A stretch of DNA of 64,000 nt from Mangifera indica. Its lineage: Eukaryota; Streptophyta; Magnoliopsida; Sapindales; Anacardiaceae. The notes under the pieces are model-generated. The model did no database searches. It had not been told where the DNA came from and saw nothing but the letters and a program-made list of their open reading frames with translations. Of this stretch, positions 16,975 through 52,870 are shown piece by piece. The first letter of the stretch is position 1; every line of letters starts with the position of its first letter. Location of the stretch: the NCBI RefSeq assembly GCF_011075055.1, contig NC_058154.1:13301184-13365183 (forward strand), given 5' to 3'. The translations under genes and the position numbers were made by a program.

Positions 16975-18061
16975 CTGATATTAAACCTTTCTTGTGGCTG
17001 ATTATTCTGTATTTCAGATTTGGCAAATTGTTCTGAATAAGCTATTTATGTGATGAACATTTTATCTGTTTATACCATTCAAATTCTTTTATAGTGGCTT
17101 TAAAATTTTTAGTGCTGCTTTTGCTGGAAAATGGTATTCCTCGATTTGGGGTCAAATTGATGGTCTTACATTAAAATTGTTAAGGAAAAATATGGACTTC
17201 CGACATGTATCAAAATGTTGAAGGACTTTTTGTTTTGTTAATGTGCAATTGTCCCTTGTATTAGATAATTTTTTGTCTTCCAGATTTGTTCCATCTGTTA
17301 TGCGGTTTCTACATTCACCATGACATCTTCCTTAGATTTTGTGGATTCGATTTTCTTGAGATTCTAGTTCCAAAATTTGAATCCTGTAGTCAGTAGGTTG
17401 CTATCTGAACTTATATATTTCTTTAAAGCAATTTTATCATTTTCTTGTATAGTGCTTAAGTGTACTTCATCTTTATGTCTCATCTAATCATAAAAAAAAT
17501 GCCCTAGTTTTTCTGCTCTAGTTGCACTAATTTCATGTCTTTTCAAGTTCTCTGCCCCTCTAATTACATACCATTTCAAATGAACAGAAAGCCTAGTTGT
17601 TAATTATTTATATGAGAAGAATGGTTTTTCATTCTTGCATGTTGCTTTATCAATGGTTCTACTTAATTTTAGACTTTCCTAAAGTTTGTGTGTCCTTATG
17701 TTTATGTCATAATTAGAATGTATGATAGTATTCTTATAGAGTCTTCTAATCTGTTGCCTGTTTGATGCATACATTATGTTAGCTGTTATGTTGGTATCAA
17801 AGTTCTGTTGAGTTATATTATCATTTCTCCTCTTCAATATTCTTAGTATTTCACTTCATATAAATTTACTGTATTTCTCTTCATGGACTAGCTTTATGTA
17901 AGGGATGCATCCAAGAATTGGGAGCTTGTTGAATCGGATGGTGGCAGCCGATTGGTAACTAAGGAGCCAACAGTGAATGCACTTCTATTAGATTATATTA
18001 CCACTGAGAAATGGCAGGGTGTTGTGGATTTTGATGATCATGTTGATGACATTAGCAAGAA
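16975..18061 (+). pseudogene. EMC8/9 3' fragment, unit B (intron 3 plus exon 4)
   Basis: Homology to the unit A gene starts abruptly inside intron 3 and runs through exon 4 at about 17892-18061 (LYVRDASKNWELVES ... DDISK). Exons 1-3 are absent. The donor after exon 4 is mutated from GTAAGC in unit A to GAAAGC. The retroelement sits eight bases further on. A scrap of the following exon lies beyond it near 22348. It cannot encode EMC8. Confidence 0.85.
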
Positions 18062-18068
18062 AGCATTC

Positions 18069-18734
18069 TGTTAGGGATTATGTTTATATGAAGAAAAGAA
18101 GAAACACAAGTGGCAATGCTAGGAGGATAACAAGTAGCAGTCAACTAGCAAGTCAACTTGTACTAAAACATACTCAATCTGCAGGGGAACATGCAGCACA
18201 GCAGAAGCCTCCAAATCAGGATACGCAATCAGAATGTGGGACCACTAAGATATCCCAAGATCAAGTAGCAATGCTGGATTAGGAATACAGGGAAATGGAG
18301 AGATAAAAAGAAACCTGGAGCGGAAGAGAAAAGGAGGGAAAAATTTGAGTAGAGTGAGCGGGAGAGAGTCAGCCTCTCGGAAGCTGAACAAGGGAGCCCT
18401 TGGCTATGGTTTTTGGAGTTGTTTTGTGAATTCTTTTGGAAATCAGTTCAATGTTATTTGGATGTGCTTTGCTGGAGTCTGTAATTGTTCTGTAATTTTG
18501 AGTTAATCCTTTGTAATAGCTGGGAAATAGTCATTGTATTGGTAGAAGACTGCTGTAAACAAGTTTATAATTTCATCAATACAATACATATTTTTCTGCT
18601 CTATTTACATTTGCATGTTCTGTCTTGGCTGGAAATTACAAAGTTCTGCAGTTGCTTCAGTTGTGTGATTGAGTCTGGAGGAGTGACATCGTCTGGAGTG
18701 CTGTGGCAGTGAAAGGCTACTCAGGTATCCATCA
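18069..18734 (+). repeat. 5' LTR (666 bp)
   Basis: Starts TGTTAGGGATTATG and ends CAGGTATCCATCA. A T/A-rich segment near 18570-18600 (AATACAATACATATTTT) is a plausible transcript-end region. Same length as the 3' LTR, and I saw no differences on direct comparison. Confidence 0.95.
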
Positions 18735-18736
18735 AT

Positions 18737-18748
18737 TGGTATCAGAGC
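18737..18748 (+). other. Primer-binding site for initiator Met tRNA
   Basis: TGGTATCAGAGC begins two bases after the 5' LTR. This is the usual plant LTR-element site complementary to the 3' end of initiator methionine tRNA. Confidence 0.9.
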
Positions 18749-18761
18749 GACGATTCTGAGG

Positions 18762-21700
18762 ATGGAAAAAATCGACTTTATCAAAGACGGTGGGCGTTGG
18801 TGGATTGTCCGGCGACTAACCCAGTGGGAAATTCGAGAACTGAGGGCTAACAGAGTTTGCCCTCGTTGTGATGGCAAAGAGGAGCTGAACCATGACTGTA
18901 AACGCAAGTCATGGGCTGTTCTGGTGGTGGAAGAGGATGATCCAGATGATGAAGGTATTCTAATTGTGTTTGATAGAGAAACCAAAAAAAGGGAAGCAGA
19001 AATAAAGATTGAAAATTCTGACGATAAAAAGAGTAGATCGATTATGTCTGGTGCCCAAATAGGAAAATCTGTTGAAGAATCAACAAAATCCGGTGAGAAA
19101 TACGTAGAAGTGGAGGCGGCGCAGTTTATTAAAAAAAGAGGTGAGGAGTTGCAGGAAAACGGATGGTGGAAGGAGACAAGGAAAAAAATGGAAGGAAATA
19201 ACCCTACCCATTTGCTACCCAATCTAAAGACCCGACCCGATCCAAAAATCATCCCCCAAAAATCTGACCCAGCCAGCATAAACCAAGTATTGACTCAACA
19301 CCCAACCCAATTTTTCATTAACCCATCCCCTAACCCAACCAAAATATATGACCCAGGCCCAAACCTTTACAATTATCTAATTTGCCACCAAAAGTTTATC
19401 CTTGGTACCAAATCAAAAATGGCGGACGTTGTTGAGACCTTCACTTTTCAGGCAGAGGTCAATCAACGGTCGAGCTTTGTCGGTAACTCTTCTGATGCCT
19501 CAGACAAGGACAAAGCCATCTCTTTCTTTCATACATGGAGTCATTTTGCTTTATCAATGGAGGTTGTGGTTACGCAAGCATTGTCAAACTTTGATCGCCA
19601 ATCGAAGTCTCCCTTCTCTTACCTCAGCATTTCCATGGTCGACCTCTATTCTCCTCTGAGTTTTGAGTTTTTTGACGAGTTTGTGAGTGGAATGTTTGAT
19701 GCGACGCTGAACCCCTCTTCTCGGTCAAGTGAGGTGATGGCTATGAAGCTTCAGAAAGTTTGCAAGAGTTTTCGTAAATGGCGGAAGTTGGTCGATTCGG
19801 CTGTCATAGCTAAAGAGTTGTGGTGGATTTTTGTTATGAGCACCTCAAAGAAATTTTACGTTAGTAAGAAGAAGAACAGGAGGAGAAAGGGAGAGAGAGA
19901 GAGATTGAGAATAGTGGCGATGGCGAGTTTGCGTTTGAGGAGACAAGAGAGTAGTCCACGGCAGCAGGATAGTCTGAGGAGTCCGGAGGCGGAGCTAGGG
20001 GTGAAGGTGGAGGATCTGTGGGACGTGCTGGAGCCACAGTTGAGTCCTACTAAGAAGCTTAATGCTTGTTTTGAGGGCATCCCTGTCTCTGCTTTTCCTC
20101 TTGCACCTTCCTCTCAATTGATTGAGATAAAATCAGACACAAGTCTAGCTGAAGCTGTTGAAATAATGGCCCAGAACAAAATTCTTAGTGCACCTGTTGT
20201 AGATGTTAATGCATCAGAGGATGCAAGTTGGATGGATAGATACATTGGAATTGTTGAGTTTGCTGGAATTGTCGTGTAGATTTTGCATCAGACAGAACCT
20301 CCTTCTCCTAAGAGTCCAAATTCCCCCACAGCTTTTTCTGTTGCAGTGAATGGCAGAGGCAAGGCTGTTGAACTTGAGAATTTAGGTCCTGAATCTGCTG
20401 CAATGACTTCTGGAAACTTTTTTGAAGCTTTGACTACTTCTGACTTATATAAGAACACAAAGGTTGGGGATGTCTCAGGGTCATTCCGGTGGGCCCCATT
20501 CCTTGCATTGCAAAGCTCCAACTCCTTCTTGACTATGCTTTTGTTGCTTTCAAAGTACAAAATGAAGAGCATTCCTCTGGTTGATTTGGATGACGGGAAG
20601 GTTAATAACATAATCACCCAATCTTCAGTTGTTCACATGTTAGCAGAATGTGCTGGTCTTCAATGGTTTGAAAGCTGGGGAACAAAAAAACTTTCAGAAA
20701 TCGGTCTTCCTGTGATGTCAGCTAAGCAAATTATCAAGGTGGGTCCATCCAACCAAGAGTACAAGGTAACTAGATTGAGTGAGAAACCCTGCAGAGAGCA
20801 GATGTTTTCACTCAAGCAGAAAAATGTGAGGGATGAGGATGGTGAAGTTCAGTCCCAGGAAATAACTGTTTATGACTACTTTGTCAATCATCGCAATATG
20901 GATTTACGATATTCGGCAGATATTCCTTGCATCAATGTTGGGAAGCCAAAGCGCCCTACGTATATCCCTCTTAAGCTTTGTTCTTTGGTTTCCTTACAAC
21001 GTTACACAAAAGCTCTTAACACGCTACAGAGAGCTTCGCTTGTGGAAAAATCAAGGCAGAAGCCGCAAGAAAGGATGAATACATTATCTAATGTTCTACG
21101 AAATGGCAAGTGTGATGCTGAACCAATGCTACATTCATGTGGCATTTCAATGAGTACTAATTTTGCTAAAGTGGAAGGCCGTGTTCTGTCCGCCCCAAGG
21201 TTCAAAGTAGGAAATGGTGAGGATTTCTTTCGTCGAAATGGGCGGTGGAATTTCGATAATAAGAAATTAGTGGAGCCAACAAAGATAGAACGATGGGCTG
21301 TTGTAAACCTTTCTGTGCACTGTGATATTCGCAGCCTTGTTCGTGATCTGATAAAATGTGGCGATATGAAAGGCTTGAAGGAAGACTTGCTAAAGGAACA
21401 GCTTGAAGGTGTATCAGAATACAAGTATTCTTCCCATAGAGATCTTGAATTGCTTAATAAGTGGAAAGGGTTGTCGGATTGCAAGTGGACTTGGGAATCA
21501 TGCAACAACTTTCAATATCTTTTTCCCCAATCACACCTTGAGGACAAGGTGTCTCTCCATGGGAGGGGTAATGTTAGGGATTATGTTTATATGAAGAAAA
21601 GAAGAAACACAAGTGGCAATGCTAGGAGGATAACAAGTAGCAGTCAACTAGCAAGTCAACTTGTACTAAAACATACTCAATCTGCAGGGGAACATGCAGC

Positions 21701-21785
21701 ACAGCAGAAGCCTCCAAATCAGGATACGCAATCAGAATGTGGGACCACTAAGATATCCCAAGATCAAGTAGCAATGCTGGATTAG
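18762..21785 (+). CDS. Chimeric retroelement frame: gag knuckle / IQM-like / SnRK1-gamma CBS / AGO4 PAZ / chromodomain
   Basis: A single frame of 1,007 codons is open from ATG 18762 to TAG 21783-21785, apart from one in-frame TAG at 20277-20279. Residues 1-62 are the C-terminal part of a Ty3/gypsy gag with a CX2CX7HXC knuckle (C33, C36, H44, C46). Residues 63-316 are acidic, then Pro/Asn-rich, without a recognised domain. Next come an IQ-motif segment, a CBS-protein segment, an Argonaute PAZ segment and a chromodomain. The frame finally runs about 70 codons into the 3' LTR. The internal TAG replaces the Trp codon expected after GIVV in the CBS protein. The pieces span places where the plant genes normally have introns, so they came from spliced mRNA. 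Whether any protein is made is unknown. Confidence 0.85.
18819..18947 (+). other. Retroelement gag zinc-knuckle segment
   Basis: The segment reads RRLTQWEIRELRANRVCPRC, then an H-D-C turn and KRK, and an acidic run EEDDPDDE. This is the characteristic end of plant Ty3/gypsy gag, where an L-T-x-x-E-x-x-x-R-R run leads into a C-x2-C-x7-H-x-C knuckle. The N-terminal gag domain is missing. Confidence 0.8.
19700..19835 (+). other. Captured host segment: IQ-motif calmodulin-binding (IQM-like) fragment
   Basis: Frame residues about 318-356 contain AMKLQKVCKSFRKWRKLVDS followed by AVIAKELWW. This matches the IQ motif and the adjoining Ala-Val-Leu/Val-x-Glu-x-x-Trp-Trp block of plant IQM calmodulin-binding proteins. 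The IQ consensus is altered (Cys and Lys at usually Tyr/Thr positions). The domain that follows in IQM proteins is missing. Short match, so the assignment is probable rather than certain. Confidence 0.65.
19920..20741 (+). other. Captured host segment: SnRK1 gamma-type CBS protein (KING1-like) with 5' leader
   Basis: A GA-rich leader (about 19866-19919) and the native-looking start MASLRLRRQESS are followed by VEDLWDVLEPQLSP, LNACFEGIPVSAFP, SDTSLAEAVEIMAQNKILSA, DRYIGIVEFAGIVV, then a TAG, and then TSGNFFEAL, FRWAPFLALQ and MLLLLSKYKMKSIPLVD up to LSEIGLPVMSA. This is the first half of the plant SnRK1 gamma-1 subunit, with its CBS repeats. The later CBS repeats are missing. Retention of the 5' leader and absence of introns indicate a reverse-transcribed mRNA origin. 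Confidence 0.88.
20277..20279 (+). other. Single in-frame TAG inside the chimeric frame
   Basis: TAG stands where the CBS family has Trp (TGG), immediately after GIVV. A one-base G-to-A change accounts for it. The frame is open for 505 codons before and 501 codons after. Present in both assembly copies. Confidence 0.85.
20742..21374 (+). other. Captured host segment: Argonaute 4-clade PAZ domain and L2 linker
   Basis: The segment starts GPSNQEYKVTRLSEKPCREQ and continues with EITVYDYFVNHR, SADIPCINVGKPKRPTYIPL, CSLVSLQRYTKALNTLQRAS, VEKSRQKPQERM, SCGISMSTNFAKVEGRVL, RNGRWNFDNKKLVEPTKIER and DIRSLVRDLIKCGDMKG. These are hallmarks of the AGO4/6/9 clade, the Argonautes of RNA-directed DNA methylation. 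The PAZ core is essentially whole. The N-terminal, MID and PIWI domains (slicer residues included) are absent. It spans several normal exon junctions without an intron. Confidence 0.9.
21375..21557 (+). other. Chromodomain of a chromovirus integrase C-terminus
   Basis: The segment reads LLNKWKGLSDCKWTWESCNN, then LFPQSHLEDKVSLHGRGN. The W-K-G-L-x-x-x-x-x-T-W-E core and the FP-x-x-HLEDKVS tail are the standard C-terminal end of plant chromovirus (Ty3/gypsy) integrases. It directly abuts the captured AGO piece and the polypurine tract. Confidence 0.85.
21561..21571 (+). other. Polypurine tract
   Basis: GGGAGGGGTAA lies immediately before the TG of the 3' LTR, where plus-strand synthesis is primed. 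Confidence 0.8.
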
Positions 21786-22237
21786 GAATACAGGGAAATG
21801 GAGAGATAAAAAGAAACCTGGAGCGGAAGAGAAAAGGAGGGAAAAATTTGAGTAGAGTGAGCGGGAGAGAGTCAGCCTCTCGGAAGCTGAACAAGGGAGC
21901 CCTTGGCTATGGTTTTTGGAGTTGTTTTGTGAATTCTTTTGGAAATCAGTTCAATGTTATTTGGATGTGCTTTGCTGGAGTCTGTAATTGTTCTGTAATT
22001 TTGAGTTAATCCTTTGTAATAGCTGGGAAATAGTCATTGTATTGGTAGAAGACTGCTGTAAACAAGTTTATAATTTCATCAATACAATACATATTTTTCT
22101 GCTCTATTTACATTTGCATGTTCTGTCTTGGCTGGAAATTACAAAGTTCTGCAGTTGCTTCAGTTGTGTGATTGAGTCTGGAGGAGTGACATCGTCTGGA
22201 GTGCTGTGGCAGTGAAAGGCTACTCAGGTATCCATCA
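21572..22237 (+). repeat. 3' LTR (666 bp)
   Basis: Starts TG at 21572, ends CA at 22237, and is followed by the CATTC duplication. Same length as the 5' LTR and, by eye, the same sequence. Its first 200 bases continue the internal reading frame to a stop at 21785. Confidence 0.95.
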
Positions 22238-22347
22238 CATTCTTTTCCAAATCTCTACTTATTTTCTCTCATTCATCTTTGTGGCTATGCCATCGTGATC
22301 AAGTCTCTTAGTCAGAATATATAATCTGTCACTGTTTTACTATTACG

Positions 22348-40329: not shown

Positions 40330-40429
40330 NNNNNNNNNNNNNNNNNNNNNNNNNNNNNNNNNNNNNNNNNNNNNNNNNNNNNNNNNNNNNNNNNNNNNNN
40401 NNNNNNNNNNNNNNNNNNNNNNNNNNNNN
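40330..40429. other. Assembly gap, exactly 100 N
   Basis: One hundred N, the conventional placeholder for a gap of unknown size between scaffolded contigs. The sequence on the right resumes at a point already seen at 9803. Confidence 0.99.
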
Positions 40430-48691: not shown

Positions 48692-51600
48692 CATTCTGTT
48701 AGGGATTATGTTTATATGAAGAAAAGAAGAAACACAAGTGGCAATGCTAGGAGGATAACAAGTAGCAGTCAACTAGCAAGTCAACTTGTACTAAAACATA
48801 CTCAATCTGCAGGGGAACATGCAGCACAGCAGAAGCCTCCAAATCAGGATACGCAATCAGAATGTGGGACCACTAAGATATCCCAAGATCAAGTAGCAAT
48901 GCTGGATTAGGAATACAGGGAAATGGAGAGATAAAAAGAAACCTGGAGCGGAAGAGAAAAGGAGGGAAAAATTTGAGTAGAGTGAGCGGGAGAGAGTCAG
49001 CCTCTCGGAAGCTGAACAAGGGAGCCCTTGGCTATGGTTTTTGGAGTTGTTTTGTGAATTCTTTTGGAAATCAGTTCAATGTTATTTGGATGTGCTTTGC
49101 TGGAGTCTGTAATTGTTCTGTAATTTTGAGTTAATCCTTTGTAATAGCTGGGAAATAGTCATTGTATTGGTAGAAGACTGCTGTAAACAAGTTTATAATT
49201 TCATCAATACAATACATATTTTTCTGCTCTATTTACATTTGCATGTTCTGTCTTGGCTGGAAATTACAAAGTTCTGCAGTTGCTTCAGTTGTGTGATTGA
49301 GTCTGGAGGAGTGACATCGTCTGGAGTGCTGTGGCAGTGAAAGGCTACTCAGGTATCCATCAATTGGTATCAGAGCGACGATTCTGAGGATGGAAAAAAT
49401 CGACTTTATCAAAGACGGTGGGCGTTGGTGGATTGTCCGGCGACTAACCCAGTGGGAAATTCGAGAACTGAGGGCTAACAGAGTTTGCCCTCGTTGTGAT
49501 GGCAAAGAGGAGCTGAACCATGACTGTAAACGCAAGTCATGGGCTGTTCTGGTGGTGGAAGAGGATGATCCAGATGATGAAGGTATTCTAATTGTGTTTG
49601 ATAGAGAAACCAAAAAAAGGGAAGCAGAAATAAAGATTGAAAATTCTGACGATAAAAAGAGTAGATCGATTATGTCTGGTGCCCAAATAGGAAAATCTGT
49701 TGAAGAATCAACAAAATCCGGTGAGAAATACGTAGAAGTGGAGGCGGCGCAGTTTATTAAAAAAAGAGGTGAGGAGTTGCAGGAAAACGGATGGTGGAAG
49801 GAGACAAGGAAAAAAATGGAAGGAAATAACCCTACCCATTTGCTACCCAATCTAAAGACCCGACCCGATCCAAAAATCATCCCCCAAAAATCTGACCCAG
49901 CCAGCATAAACCAAGTATTGACTCAACACCCAACCCAATTTTTCATTAACCCATCCCCTAACCCAACCAAAATATATGACCCAGGCCCAAACCTTTACAA
50001 TTATCTAATTTGCCACCAAAAGTTTATCCTTGGTACCAAATCAAAAATGGCGGACGTTGTTGAGACCTTCACTTTTCAGGCAGAGGTCAATCAACGGTCG
50101 AGCTTTGTCGGTAACTCTTCTGATGCCTCAGACAAGGACAAAGCCATCTCTTTCTTTCATACATGGAGTCATTTTGCTTTATCAATGGAGGTTGTGGTTA
50201 CGCAAGCATTGTCAAACTTTGATCGCCAATCGAAGTCTCCCTTCTCTTACCTCAGCATTTCCATGGTCGACCTCTATTCTCCTCTGAGTTTTGAGTTTTT
50301 TGACGAGTTTGTGAGTGGAATGTTTGATGCGACGCTGAACCCCTCTTCTCGGTCAAGTGAGGTGATGGCTATGAAGCTTCAGAAAGTTTGCAAGAGTTTT
50401 CGTAAATGGCGGAAGTTGGTCGATTCGGCTGTCATAGCTAAAGAGTTGTGGTGGATTTTTGTTATGAGCACCTCAAAGAAATTTTACGTTAGTAAGAAGA
50501 AGAACAGGAGGAGAAAGGGAGAGAGAGAGAGATTGAGAATAGTGGCGATGGCGAGTTTGCGTTTGAGGAGACAAGAGAGTAGTCCACGGCAGCAGGATAG
50601 TCTGAGGAGTCCGGAGGCGGAGCTAGGGGTGAAGGTGGAGGATCTGTGGGACGTGCTGGAGCCACAGTTGAGTCCTACTAAGAAGCTTAATGCTTGTTTT
50701 GAGGGCATCCCTGTCTCTGCTTTTCCTCTTGCACCTTCCTCTCAATTGATTGAGATAAAATCAGACACAAGTCTAGCTGAAGCTGTTGAAATAATGGCCC
50801 AGAACAAAATTCTTAGTGCACCTGTTGTAGATGTTAATGCATCAGAGGATGCAAGTTGGATGGATAGATACATTGGAATTGTTGAGTTTGCTGGAATTGT
50901 CGTGTAGATTTTGCATCAGACAGAACCTCCTTCTCCTAAGAGTCCAAATTCCCCCACAGCTTTTTCTGTTGCAGTGAATGGCAGAGGCAAGGCTGTTGAA
51001 CTTGAGAATTTAGGTCCTGAATCTGCTGCAATGACTTCTGGAAACTTTTTTGAAGCTTTGACTACTTCTGACTTATATAAGAACACAAAGGTTGGGGATG
51101 TCTCAGGGTCATTCCGGTGGGCCCCATTCCTTGCATTGCAAAGCTCCAACTCCTTCTTGACTATGCTTTTGTTGCTTTCAAAGTACAAAATGAAGAGCAT
51201 TCCTCTGGTTGATTTGGATGACGGGAAGGTTAATAACATAATCACCCAATCTTCAGTTGTTCACATGTTAGCAGAATGTGCTGGTCTTCAATGGTTTGAA
51301 AGCTGGGGAACAAAAAAACTTTCAGAAATCGGTCTTCCTGTGATGTCAGCTAAGCAAATTATCAAGGTGGGTCCATCCAACCAAGAGTACAAGGTAACTA
51401 GATTGAGTGAGAAACCCTGCAGAGAGCAGATGTTTTCACTCAAGCAGAAAAATGTGAGGGATGAGGATGGTGAAGTTCAGTCCCAGGAAATAACTGTTTA
51501 TGACTACTTTGTCAATCATCGCAATATGGATTTACGATATTCGGCAGATATTCCTTGCATCAATGTTGGGAAGCCAAAGCGCCCTACGTATATCCCTCTT

Positions 51601-52870
51601 AAGCTTTGTTCTTTGGTTTCCTTACAACGTTACACAAAAGCTCTTAACACGCTACAGAGAGCTTCGCTTGTGGAAAAATCAAGGCAGAAGCCGCAAGAAA
51701 GGATGAATACATTATCTAATGTTCTACGAAATGGCAAGTGTGATGCTGAACCAATGCTACATTCATGTGGCATTTCAATGAGTACTAATTTTGCTAAAGT
51801 GGAAGGCCGTGTTCTGTCCGCCCCAAGGTTCAAAGTAGGAAATGGTGAGGATTTCTTTCGTCGAAATGGGCGGTGGAATTTCGATAATAAGAAATTAGTG
51901 GAGCCAACAAAGATAGAACGATGGGCTGTTGTAAACCTTTCTGTGCACTGTGATATTCGCAGCCTTGTTCGTGATCTGATAAAATGTGGCGATATGAAAG
52001 GCTTGAAGGAAGACTTGCTAAAGGAACAGCTTGAAGGTGTATCAGAATACAAGTATTCTTCCCATAGAGATCTTGAATTGCTTAATAAGTGGAAAGGGTT
52101 GTCGGATTGCAAGTGGACTTGGGAATCATGCAACAACTTTCAATATCTTTTTCCCCAATCACACCTTGAGGACAAGGTGTCTCTCCATGGGAGGGGTAAT
52201 GTTAGGGATTATGTTTATATGAAGAAAAGAAGAAACACAAGTGGCAATGCTAGGAGGATAACAAGTAGCAGTCAACTAGCAAGTCAACTTGTACTAAAAC
52301 ATACTCAATCTGCAGGGGAACATGCAGCACAGCAGAAGCCTCCAAATCAGGATACGCAATCAGAATGTGGGACCACTAAGATATCCCAAGATCAAGTAGC
52401 AATGCTGGATTAGGAATACAGGGAAATGGAGAGATAAAAAGAAACCTGGAGCGGAAGAGAAAAGGAGGGAAAAATTTGAGTAGAGTGAGCGGGAGAGAGT
52501 CAGCCTCTCGGAAGCTGAACAAGGGAGCCCTTGGCTATGGTTTTTGGAGTTGTTTTGTGAATTCTTTTGGAAATCAGTTCAATGTTATTTGGATGTGCTT
52601 TGCTGGAGTCTGTAATTGTTCTGTAATTTTGAGTTAATCCTTTGTAATAGCTGGGAAATAGTCATTGTATTGGTAGAAGACTGCTGTAAACAAGTTTATA
52701 ATTTCATCAATACAATACATATTTTTCTGCTCTATTTACATTTGCATGTTCTGTCTTGGCTGGAAATTACAAAGTTCTGCAGTTGCTTCAGTTGTGTGAT
52801 TGAGTCTGGAGGAGTGACATCGTCTGGAGTGCTGTGGCAGTGAAAGGCTACTCAGGTATCCATCACATTC
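48692..52870 (+). mobile_element. Chimeric LTR retroelement, second assembly copy
   Basis: The element is 48697-52865 with CATTC at 48692-48696 and 52866-52870. LTRs are 48697-49362 and 52200-52865. The primer site is at 49365-49376. The same flanking sequence and the same target duplication mean that this is the same insertion event, not an independent one. Confidence 0.95.
49390..52413 (+). CDS. Chimeric retroelement frame, second copy
   Basis: Same order as the first copy: gag knuckle (49447-49575), IQM-like (about 50328-50463), SnRK1-gamma CBS (50548-51369), AGO4 PAZ/L2 (51370-52002) and chromodomain (52003-52185). The single TAG is at 50905-50907. Confidence 0.85.

What the first reader, a model, noticed from the sequence alone, without database searches (positions are those of the whole stretch)
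18069..22237. LTR retroelement that has replaced its pol region with fragments of three host genes
Seen: complete LTRs, TSD, primer site and polypurine tract; between a gag zinc knuckle and a chromovirus chromodomain lie an IQM-like IQ motif, half of a SnRK1-gamma CBS protein with its 5' leader, and an AGO4-clade PAZ/L2 region. All are intron-free and in frame. Known: plant LTR elements can capture host transcripts by template switching during reverse transcription. Three captures plus retention of both element ends in one 4.2-kb unit is unusual. Inference: an autonomous chromovirus relative copackaged host mRNAs, and successive template switches built the element.
Basis: partly seen in the sequence, partly recalled or inferred. 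Interest (0 to 1): 0.92.

Follow-up and report, generated by a model that had tools for sequence, protein, structure and literature searches.

The report
Hollow retrotransposon that swallows host genes
This is a stripped-down plant retrotransposon that lacks its own enzymes and carries intron-free pieces of three host genes in one reading frame (broken by a single stop in this copy), while its relatives in the same genome carry pieces of five other genes; the pieces were most likely picked up by template switching during reverse transcription and moved with enzymes likely borrowed from intact relatives, which would make it a natural exon-shuffling machine.

Summary
The finding is real and larger than reported. 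The 4,169-bp element (18069-22237) has identical 666-bp LTRs, a 5-bp target duplication, primer site and polypurine tract. Its middle is spliced exons of three located host genes (IQM-like, CBS-domain, Argonaute). An independent copy on C10, with a different target duplication and 99.6% identical inside, shows that the chimera has moved. The second copy in the window sits in a 23.6-kb, 99.98% duplicate beginning right after an N gap and is probably an assembly duplicate.

The element belongs to a family. Relatives keep the same N-terminal zinc-knuckle module, and most the chromodomain tail, but carry pieces of five more located genes (HSP90, SPL-like, KARI, DUF7815, one unnamed). Twenty-one of 22 module joins keep frame; 7 of 11 young copies have one open frame from primer site to polypurine tract. 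The N-terminal module is under purifying selection (dN/dS mostly near 0.1), cargo far less. Both ends resemble a chromovirus type with intact copies in this genome, the likely helper.

Capture of several host mRNAs is known (maize Bs1, soybean GmaRetroS15). New here, as far as my searches show: a family with serial cargo turnover, a frame rule and a selected leading domain.

The parts
18064..18068 (.). target site duplication CATTC (left)
18069..18734 (+). 5' LTR, 666 bp, TG...CA
   Evidence: 100% identical to the 3' LTR
18737..18748 (+). primer binding site TGGTATCAGAGC
   Evidence: sequence; tRNA-iMet assignment recalled
18762..18980 (+). N-terminal zinc-knuckle module (start of the fused ORF)
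   Evidence: found in 22 of 22 elements tested, dN/dS mostly about 0.1; gag similarity E 6.4e-5; 60 places in the genome at E<=1e-14
18981..19506 (+). proline-rich family linker and IQM-branch leader
   Evidence: shared in part with L014, L029, L030, L031
19507..19858 (+). captured IQM-like mRNA piece with IQ-motif stretch
   Evidence: donor C1:4541259-4541575 plus part of the next exon, 82% and 94%
19867..20744 (+). captured CBS-domain mRNA piece (leader, then codons from 19920), four spliced exons
   Evidence: donor C3:3630525-3632365(-), 94-98%
20277..20279 (+). in-frame TAG, not shared by the C10 copy
20733..21374 (+). captured Argonaute mRNA piece (PAZ, L2, start of MID), six spliced exons
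   Evidence: donor C2:13217861-13219029(-), 92-98%; PAZ E 6e-23; PDB Argonautes E 1.2e-25
21375..21560 (+). chromodomain-like tail of a chromovirus integrase
   Evidence: 52% over 60 residues to the L049 integrase tail, E 1.1e-15; at least half of it in 15 of 22 elements
21561..21568 (+). polypurine tract GGGAGGGG
   Evidence: sequence; similar purine runs in relatives
21572..22237 (+). 3' LTR; the frame runs on into it to 21785
22238..22242 (.). target site duplication CATTC (right)
48697..52865 (+). second copy of the element, same TSD, inside a 23.6-kb 99.98% duplicate; probably an assembly duplicate

Best explanation
This is a non-autonomous LTR retrotransposon that keeps only a gag-like zinc-knuckle module and an integrase-tail chromodomain between its LTRs and holds spliced exons of three host genes in one reading frame (with one stop in this copy), most likely built by template switching of reverse transcriptase between element RNA and host mRNAs, and likely moved in trans by intact chromoviruses of the same genome. 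Shown: anatomy, donor genes, loss of introns, an independent chimeric insertion, eight donor genes across the family, frame preservation at 21 of 22 joins, purifying selection on the leading module, and elements with near-identical insides but different LTRs. Inferred: the chromovirus packages the RNA; reverse transcriptase switches to host mRNAs at short homologies; new captures overwrite older cargo. Also inferred: the frame is kept because the leading module is translated in cis, and a frame that runs to the 3' LTR would spare the RNA from nonsense-mediated decay. The cargo itself would be mostly a passenger.
For: Donors: IQM-like, CBS (20), Argonaute (22), SPL-like (42), KARI (62), HSP90 (66, 90), DUF7815 (95) and the unnamed gene in L013 (107); each donor matches as separate exon blocks and the element as continuous sequence. 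Transposition of the chimera: L010 on C10, TSD GTGAG against CATTC, 10 of 2,837 internal differences, LTRs identical within and between the two. Template switching: at the capture joins compared, the two donors share 10 nt (IQM/CBS; 7 with the other sister element), 9 nt (CBS/AGO; at least 6 if an intron starts there), 5 nt (AGO/tail) and 5 nt (SPL/AGO), against a mean longest run of 2.61 in unrelated sequence, P(>=5) 0.047, P(>=9) 0.0004. Deletion joins inside the Argonaute piece show 6, 8, 11 and 3 nt. Frame: 21 of 22 joins, 19 of 20 without L013 (P 1.2e-8). Open frames: 7 of 11 young elements (LTRs >=99% identical, duplicate left out) fully open, 3 with one stop, 1 (L029) with a frameshift; the other two sense frames of the ten besides L029 have 30-97 stops. 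Selection on the leading module: window against L025, 27 synonymous and 18 nonsynonymous changes in 73 codons, dN/dS 0.09, P 4e-8; four within-branch pairs 21 and 15, P 2.6e-6; with the older pair L030-L031 added, P 5.7e-6. Module exchange: L038 and L039 are 99.8% identical inside but 84% in the LTR; L014 and L029 are 96.1% inside with LTRs aligning over 4% only. Helper type: frames of 1,682, 1,682 and 1,679 aa without stops hold the RT match (E about 1e-58) and a weak zinc-knuckle match (E 3.6e-4), and a chromodomain DNA match (70%, E 9e-11) lies at the same three loci.
Against: No transcript, protein or transposition was observed. Both chimeric insertions carry a private stop, so neither encodes the whole fusion. 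L037 has an out-of-frame SPL/AGO join, L029 a frameshift between leader and cargo, and the DUF7815 and Argonaute parts of L026 share a register across a stop. In one search strict overlap was negative in 6 of 14 rows and falsely anchored in 3; only five rows scored, all deletions inside the Argonaute piece, two of them the same join. Two of the four capture joins are no better than P 0.047. The tail shows no protein-level constraint (P 0.39), which weakens the idea that the whole fusion protein is needed. Cargo between elements gives dN/dS of 0.3-0.55 for IQM and PAZ pieces, so it may not be fully neutral. The helper's knuckle match is weak and none of its loci is among the 40 LTR matches, so the helper is not proven. 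The joins come from copies young enough to read.
Confidence: 0.82

Rival explanations
1. The frame is kept only for the RNA: a long open frame avoids nonsense-mediated decay, and no fusion protein matters beyond the short leading module.
For: CBS changes on the element side are 9 N and 3 S shared with L010, plus a private 1 S and 1 stop; cargo against donors gives dN/dS 0.28-1.94, and the tail is unconstrained, while the leading module is constrained.
Against: It does not explain why at least half of the chromodomain coding sequence is kept in 15 of 22 elements, although that could be a cis RNA need near the polypurine tract.
Confidence: 0.45
2. Cargo is kept because it protects the element: pieces of important host genes make silencing by small RNAs costly, or the Argonaute pieces interfere with the silencing effector itself.
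For: Donors include HSP90, KARI and an Argonaute; the Argonaute piece is in 13 of 23 elements compared. The camouflage idea is in print for other captured genes (PMC13317346 section 11).
Against: Cargo is weakly constrained at best and differs between branches. In 11 of the 13 elements the Argonaute piece ends at the same donor base, so one founding capture explains its frequency. No small-RNA data.
Confidence: 0.2
3. The inside was assembled by DNA insertions or by recombination after integration.
For: LTR and inside have different histories in several pairs, so exchange does occur.
Against: The introns of the donors are missing from the captured pieces, and the same junctions occur at two unrelated sites with different TSDs.
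Confidence: 0.03
4. Assembly artefact.
For: The second window copy lies in a 23.6-kb duplicate starting right after a 100-N gap.
Against: The first copy and L010 stand in different flanks with different TSDs; family members lie on many chromosomes.
Confidence: 0.02

Closest known systems
Maize Bs1
   Same: LTR element with pieces of three host genes (PMC13317346 section 4), exons only (said in PMC4717578 section 13), forming a hybrid reading frame (title in the reference list)
   Different: Here a family with eight located donors, different cargo in different branches, a constrained zinc-knuckle leader and a chromodomain tail; sequence relation to Bs1 was not tested
Soybean TRIM GmaRetroS15 and other gene-carrying TRIMs
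   Same: Non-autonomous LTR elements with exon-only pieces, in GmaRetroS15 of three genes, with 5-bp TSDs and most with two or more copies (PMC4717578 section 13)
   Different: Those are 1,172-1,449 bp; the section read reports no reading frame or constrained domain
TR-GAG elements
   Same: Non-autonomous, one ORF with gag material; one was seen to transpose in Arabidopsis ddm1 (PMC8704663 passages)
   Different: TR-GAG encodes a GAG protein; here only the zinc-knuckle part is left and no capsid domain is found
Chromoviruses of the same genome (L049; intact loci on C15 and C1)
   Same: Zinc knuckle, chromodomain tail and the position of the tail next to the LTR
   Different: They keep RT and integrase parts; no such domain was found in this family

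Membership tests
LTR retrotransposon (non-autonomous) | two LTRs, TSD, PBS, PPT | tested here: met
LTR retrotransposon (non-autonomous) | no reverse transcriptase or integrase core | tested here: met
   no such Pfam hit on the two window ORFs or on six relatives' ORFs
Chromovirus (complete element) | RT and integrase with a chromodomain | tested here: not met
   only a chromodomain-like tail is left; derived from, not a complete member
TR-GAG | single ORF encoding the GAG protein | tested here: not met
   no Retrotrans_gag or capsid hit, although the same library finds gag in L049
TRIM | small size (gene-carrying ones 1,172-1,449 bp in PMC4717578) | tested here: not met
   4,169 bp
Bs1-type gene-transducing LTR element | exon-only pieces of several host genes in one hybrid ORF | tested here: met
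   one stop in this copy
Bs1-type gene-transducing LTR element | sequence descent from Bs1 | not tested
   Bs1 paper not held; no maize sequence at hand
Template-switch product | introns of the donors absent | tested here: met
Template-switch product | microhomology at the capture joins | tested here: inconclusive
   10, 9, 5 and 5 nt shared by the donors at four joins: two clearly beyond chance, two at P 0.047; strict scoring failed at the capture joins

The most novel reading that the evidence does not exclude
A long-lived parasite of chromoviruses works as an open-frame exon shuffler: a selected nucleic-acid-binding leader domain is fused in frame to whatever host mRNA was copied last, so that each new branch makes a new fusion protein, and LTRs and cargo are traded between branches during reverse transcription.
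Probability: 0.4. Interest if true: 0.86.

Novelty: new variant of a known kind. Interest (0 to 1): 0.74.

Why it matters
Bs1 is a long-known LTR element that built a hybrid gene from host mRNAs. A family in one genome with eight located donors, datable captures, readable joins and intact likely helpers turns that case into a replicated natural experiment. It allows direct tests of how template switching chooses host mRNAs, why reading frame is kept, and whether such elements make new proteins.

Tried and rejected
Protein search for the N-terminal module among 5.8 billion proteins: 582 candidates, none at E<=0.001, so the spread outside this genome is unknown. PDB search with the first window ORF: no hit. 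Two window copies as two insertions: rejected. Selection on the Argonaute piece as a sign of function: weak only (P 0.04), not claimed. The KARI donor and the Argonaute paralog could not be fetched, so there is no polarised test for them. The host is probably mango 'Alphonso' by matching assembly figures (391.4 Mb here; C1 29.46, C10 17.65, C20 12.29 Mb; paper: 392.9 Mb, 20 pseudomolecules of 12.2-29.4 Mb, N50 17.6 Mb; PMC7059373 passages); the paper has 252 scaffolds against 241 here, and no sequence test was made. Papers: among the rows listed by the searches (titles and starts of abstracts seen) I saw no report of this family; one search was for the host.

Full report
What is there. The element at 18069-22237 is 4,169 bp long, with 666-bp LTRs that are identical, TSD CATTC, PBS TGGTATCAGAGC and PPT GGGAGGGG. 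Between them one register runs from the start codon at 18762 to a TAG at 20277-20279 and then from 20280 on into the 3' LTR, to 21785.

Where the middle comes from. Searching the window's own genome (G000) with each piece found multi-exon donor genes. The CBS piece is four exon blocks of a gene at C3:3630525-3632365(-), 94-98% identical, with a paralog on C20. The Argonaute piece is six blocks at C2:13217861-13219029(-), 92-98%. The IQM-like piece matches C1:4541259-4541575 (82%) and part of the next exon (94%). The element lacks the introns. The CBS and IQM pieces begin upstream of the ATG of the donor's open frame, as if the enzyme had copied close to the mRNA's 5' end before switching (inference; no donor is annotated here).

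Copies. Three places carry the full chimera. L010 on C10 is independent (TSD GTGAG). The second window copy, 48697-52865, shares TSD and flanks with the first. It lies in a duplicate (9803-33372 against 40430-64000, 99.98%) that starts at the base after a 100-N gap at 40330-40429, and the window ends about 6.6 kb before the contig end. I count one insertion. The window and L010 differ at 10 of 2,837 inner bases, and each has a stop that the other lacks.

The family. I tabulated 24 elements with two LTRs (both window copies and L024, a degenerate relative with protease- and integrase-like remnants by eye, are included). Of these, 19 showed a perfect 5-bp TSD next to TG...CA ends (16 of 21, which allowed shifts of up to 12 bases, and 3). 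Four further loci look like solo LTRs with TSDs (L011, L012, L015, L017); L018, L019, L021, L022, L032, L041, L042 and the arrays L046/L047 were fetched but not tabulated. The N-terminal module is in 22 of 22 elements tested and at least half of the tail in 15 of 22 (L024 and the window duplicate left out). The middles differ: SPL-like plus Argonaute (L025, L037), KARI plus Argonaute (L027, L038-L040), HSP90 plus IQM plus Argonaute (L014, L029, L035, L036), DUF7815 plus Argonaute (L026), IQM (L030, L031), another gene (L013, L016). Donor loci: C8:2697000-2698762, C14:4934883-4936820, C8:6392853-6393969 (HSP90 by PDB match), C8:6791977-6793816, C2:22494065-22494745. With the three above this makes eight donors. 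The N-terminal module is found at 60 places at E<=1e-14, of 149 listed (150 of 391 candidates were scored).

Order of capture. Synonymous distance to the donor is 0.28-0.37 for IQM, 0.02-0.08 for Argonaute, 0.05-0.06 for SPL and 0.03-0.04 for CBS, against 0.283 between the CBS donor and its paralog. Of 13 elements with an Argonaute piece (of 23 compared), 11 end at the same donor base next to the same tail, which points to one founding capture; four share a left border, but it is an exon start and so says little. CBS occurs only in the window copies and L010.

Frame. In 75 of 75 ungapped donor blocks of at least 60 nt from 15 elements the donor has no stop in the element's register; each block has stops in at least one other register, and in 6 one other register is also free. 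Because donor and element are nearly identical this only fixes the local register. Twenty-one of 22 listed joins keep the register; the SPL/AGO join of L037 does not (P 1.4e-9 at one third). For the two L013 joins the donor frame was not checked; without them 19 of 20 (P 1.2e-8). I chose the list, from copies young enough to read, and counted joins shared by a branch once.

Joins. Donors share 10, 9, 5 and 5 nt at four capture joins and 6, 8, 11 and 3 nt at four deletion joins inside the Argonaute piece. In one search, 6 of 14 rows were negative and 3 falsely anchored.

Selection. Between branches the N-terminal module has dS up to about 1.3 and dN about 0.1 (window against 21 other elements: dN/dS 0.07-0.38). 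Four within-branch pairs that I picked give 21 synonymous and 15 nonsynonymous changes, P 2.6e-6, or 1.3e-4 with a lower neutral share; adding L030-L031, which carry stops and look more relaxed, gives 27 and 27 (rounded), P 5.7e-6 and 5.1e-4. Synonymous sites vary freely, so the constraint is on protein. Cargo gives dN/dS 0.28-1.94 against donors and 0.3-0.55 between elements for IQM and PAZ pieces. CBS changes on the element side are 9 N to 3 S, and the tail is not constrained (P 0.39). These are Nei-Gojobori counts that I coded, without a transition bias correction.

Exchange and helper. L038 and L039 are 99.8% identical inside but 84% in their LTRs, each with its own pair of identical LTRs; L014 and L029 are 96.1% inside with LTRs that align over 4% only. 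This fits switching between co-packaged RNAs (inference). The window's module aligns to the gag knuckle of L049 (36% over 44 residues, E 6.4e-5) and its tail to the integrase end (52% over 60, E 1.1e-15). At C15:10635189, C15:1664806 and C1:4485002 a knuckle match (E 3.6e-4) lies in stop-free frames of 1,682, 1,682 and 1,679 aa; the RT match falls in frames of the same lengths at the same loci, and a chromodomain DNA match lies there too. So intact copies of the helper type exist; that they move this family is inferred.

Known or new. Bs1 (review PMC13317346, sections 4 and 11 and passages read) and GmaRetroS15 (PMC4717578, section 13 read) show the kind. TR-GAG transposition was read in passages of PMC8704663. 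The rice and sorghum survey PMC3726574 was seen in passages. I saw no report of this family among the rows listed; the Bs1 paper itself is not held. I therefore call it a new variant of a known kind.

Noticed in passing
window 9803-33372 and 40430-64000: 23.6-kb, 99.98% identical duplicate starting right after a 100-N gap (40330-40429) near the contig end; probably a redundant contig in the assembly.
   Followed up: partly
window 17880-18068 and downstream: The element sits beside an exon of a gene with a Pfam UPF0172 match (E 3.7e-6; EMC8/9 is a recalled name), probably in or at its last intron.
   Followed up: partly
L046 and L047 (C3:14769738-14783722): Tandem array of nine short family units (LTR plus about 1.1 kb inside) every 1.66-1.75 kb; the five units translated carry 5-18 stops.
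   Followed up: partly
C9:16107638-16124359(-): Four RT matches spaced exactly 5,453 bases, each in a 1,691-aa open frame: looks like a tandem array of a chromovirus.
   Followed up: no
L020, L030, L031, L033, L034: Older members with cargo that looks like a STE20-type kinase, a PPR protein, pyruvate kinase and an AAA ATPase; these names are recalled from the translations and were not tested.
   Followed up: no
C5:802865-803164: A 300-bp stretch 98% identical to the KARI cargo of L039, outside the donor gene.
   Followed up: no
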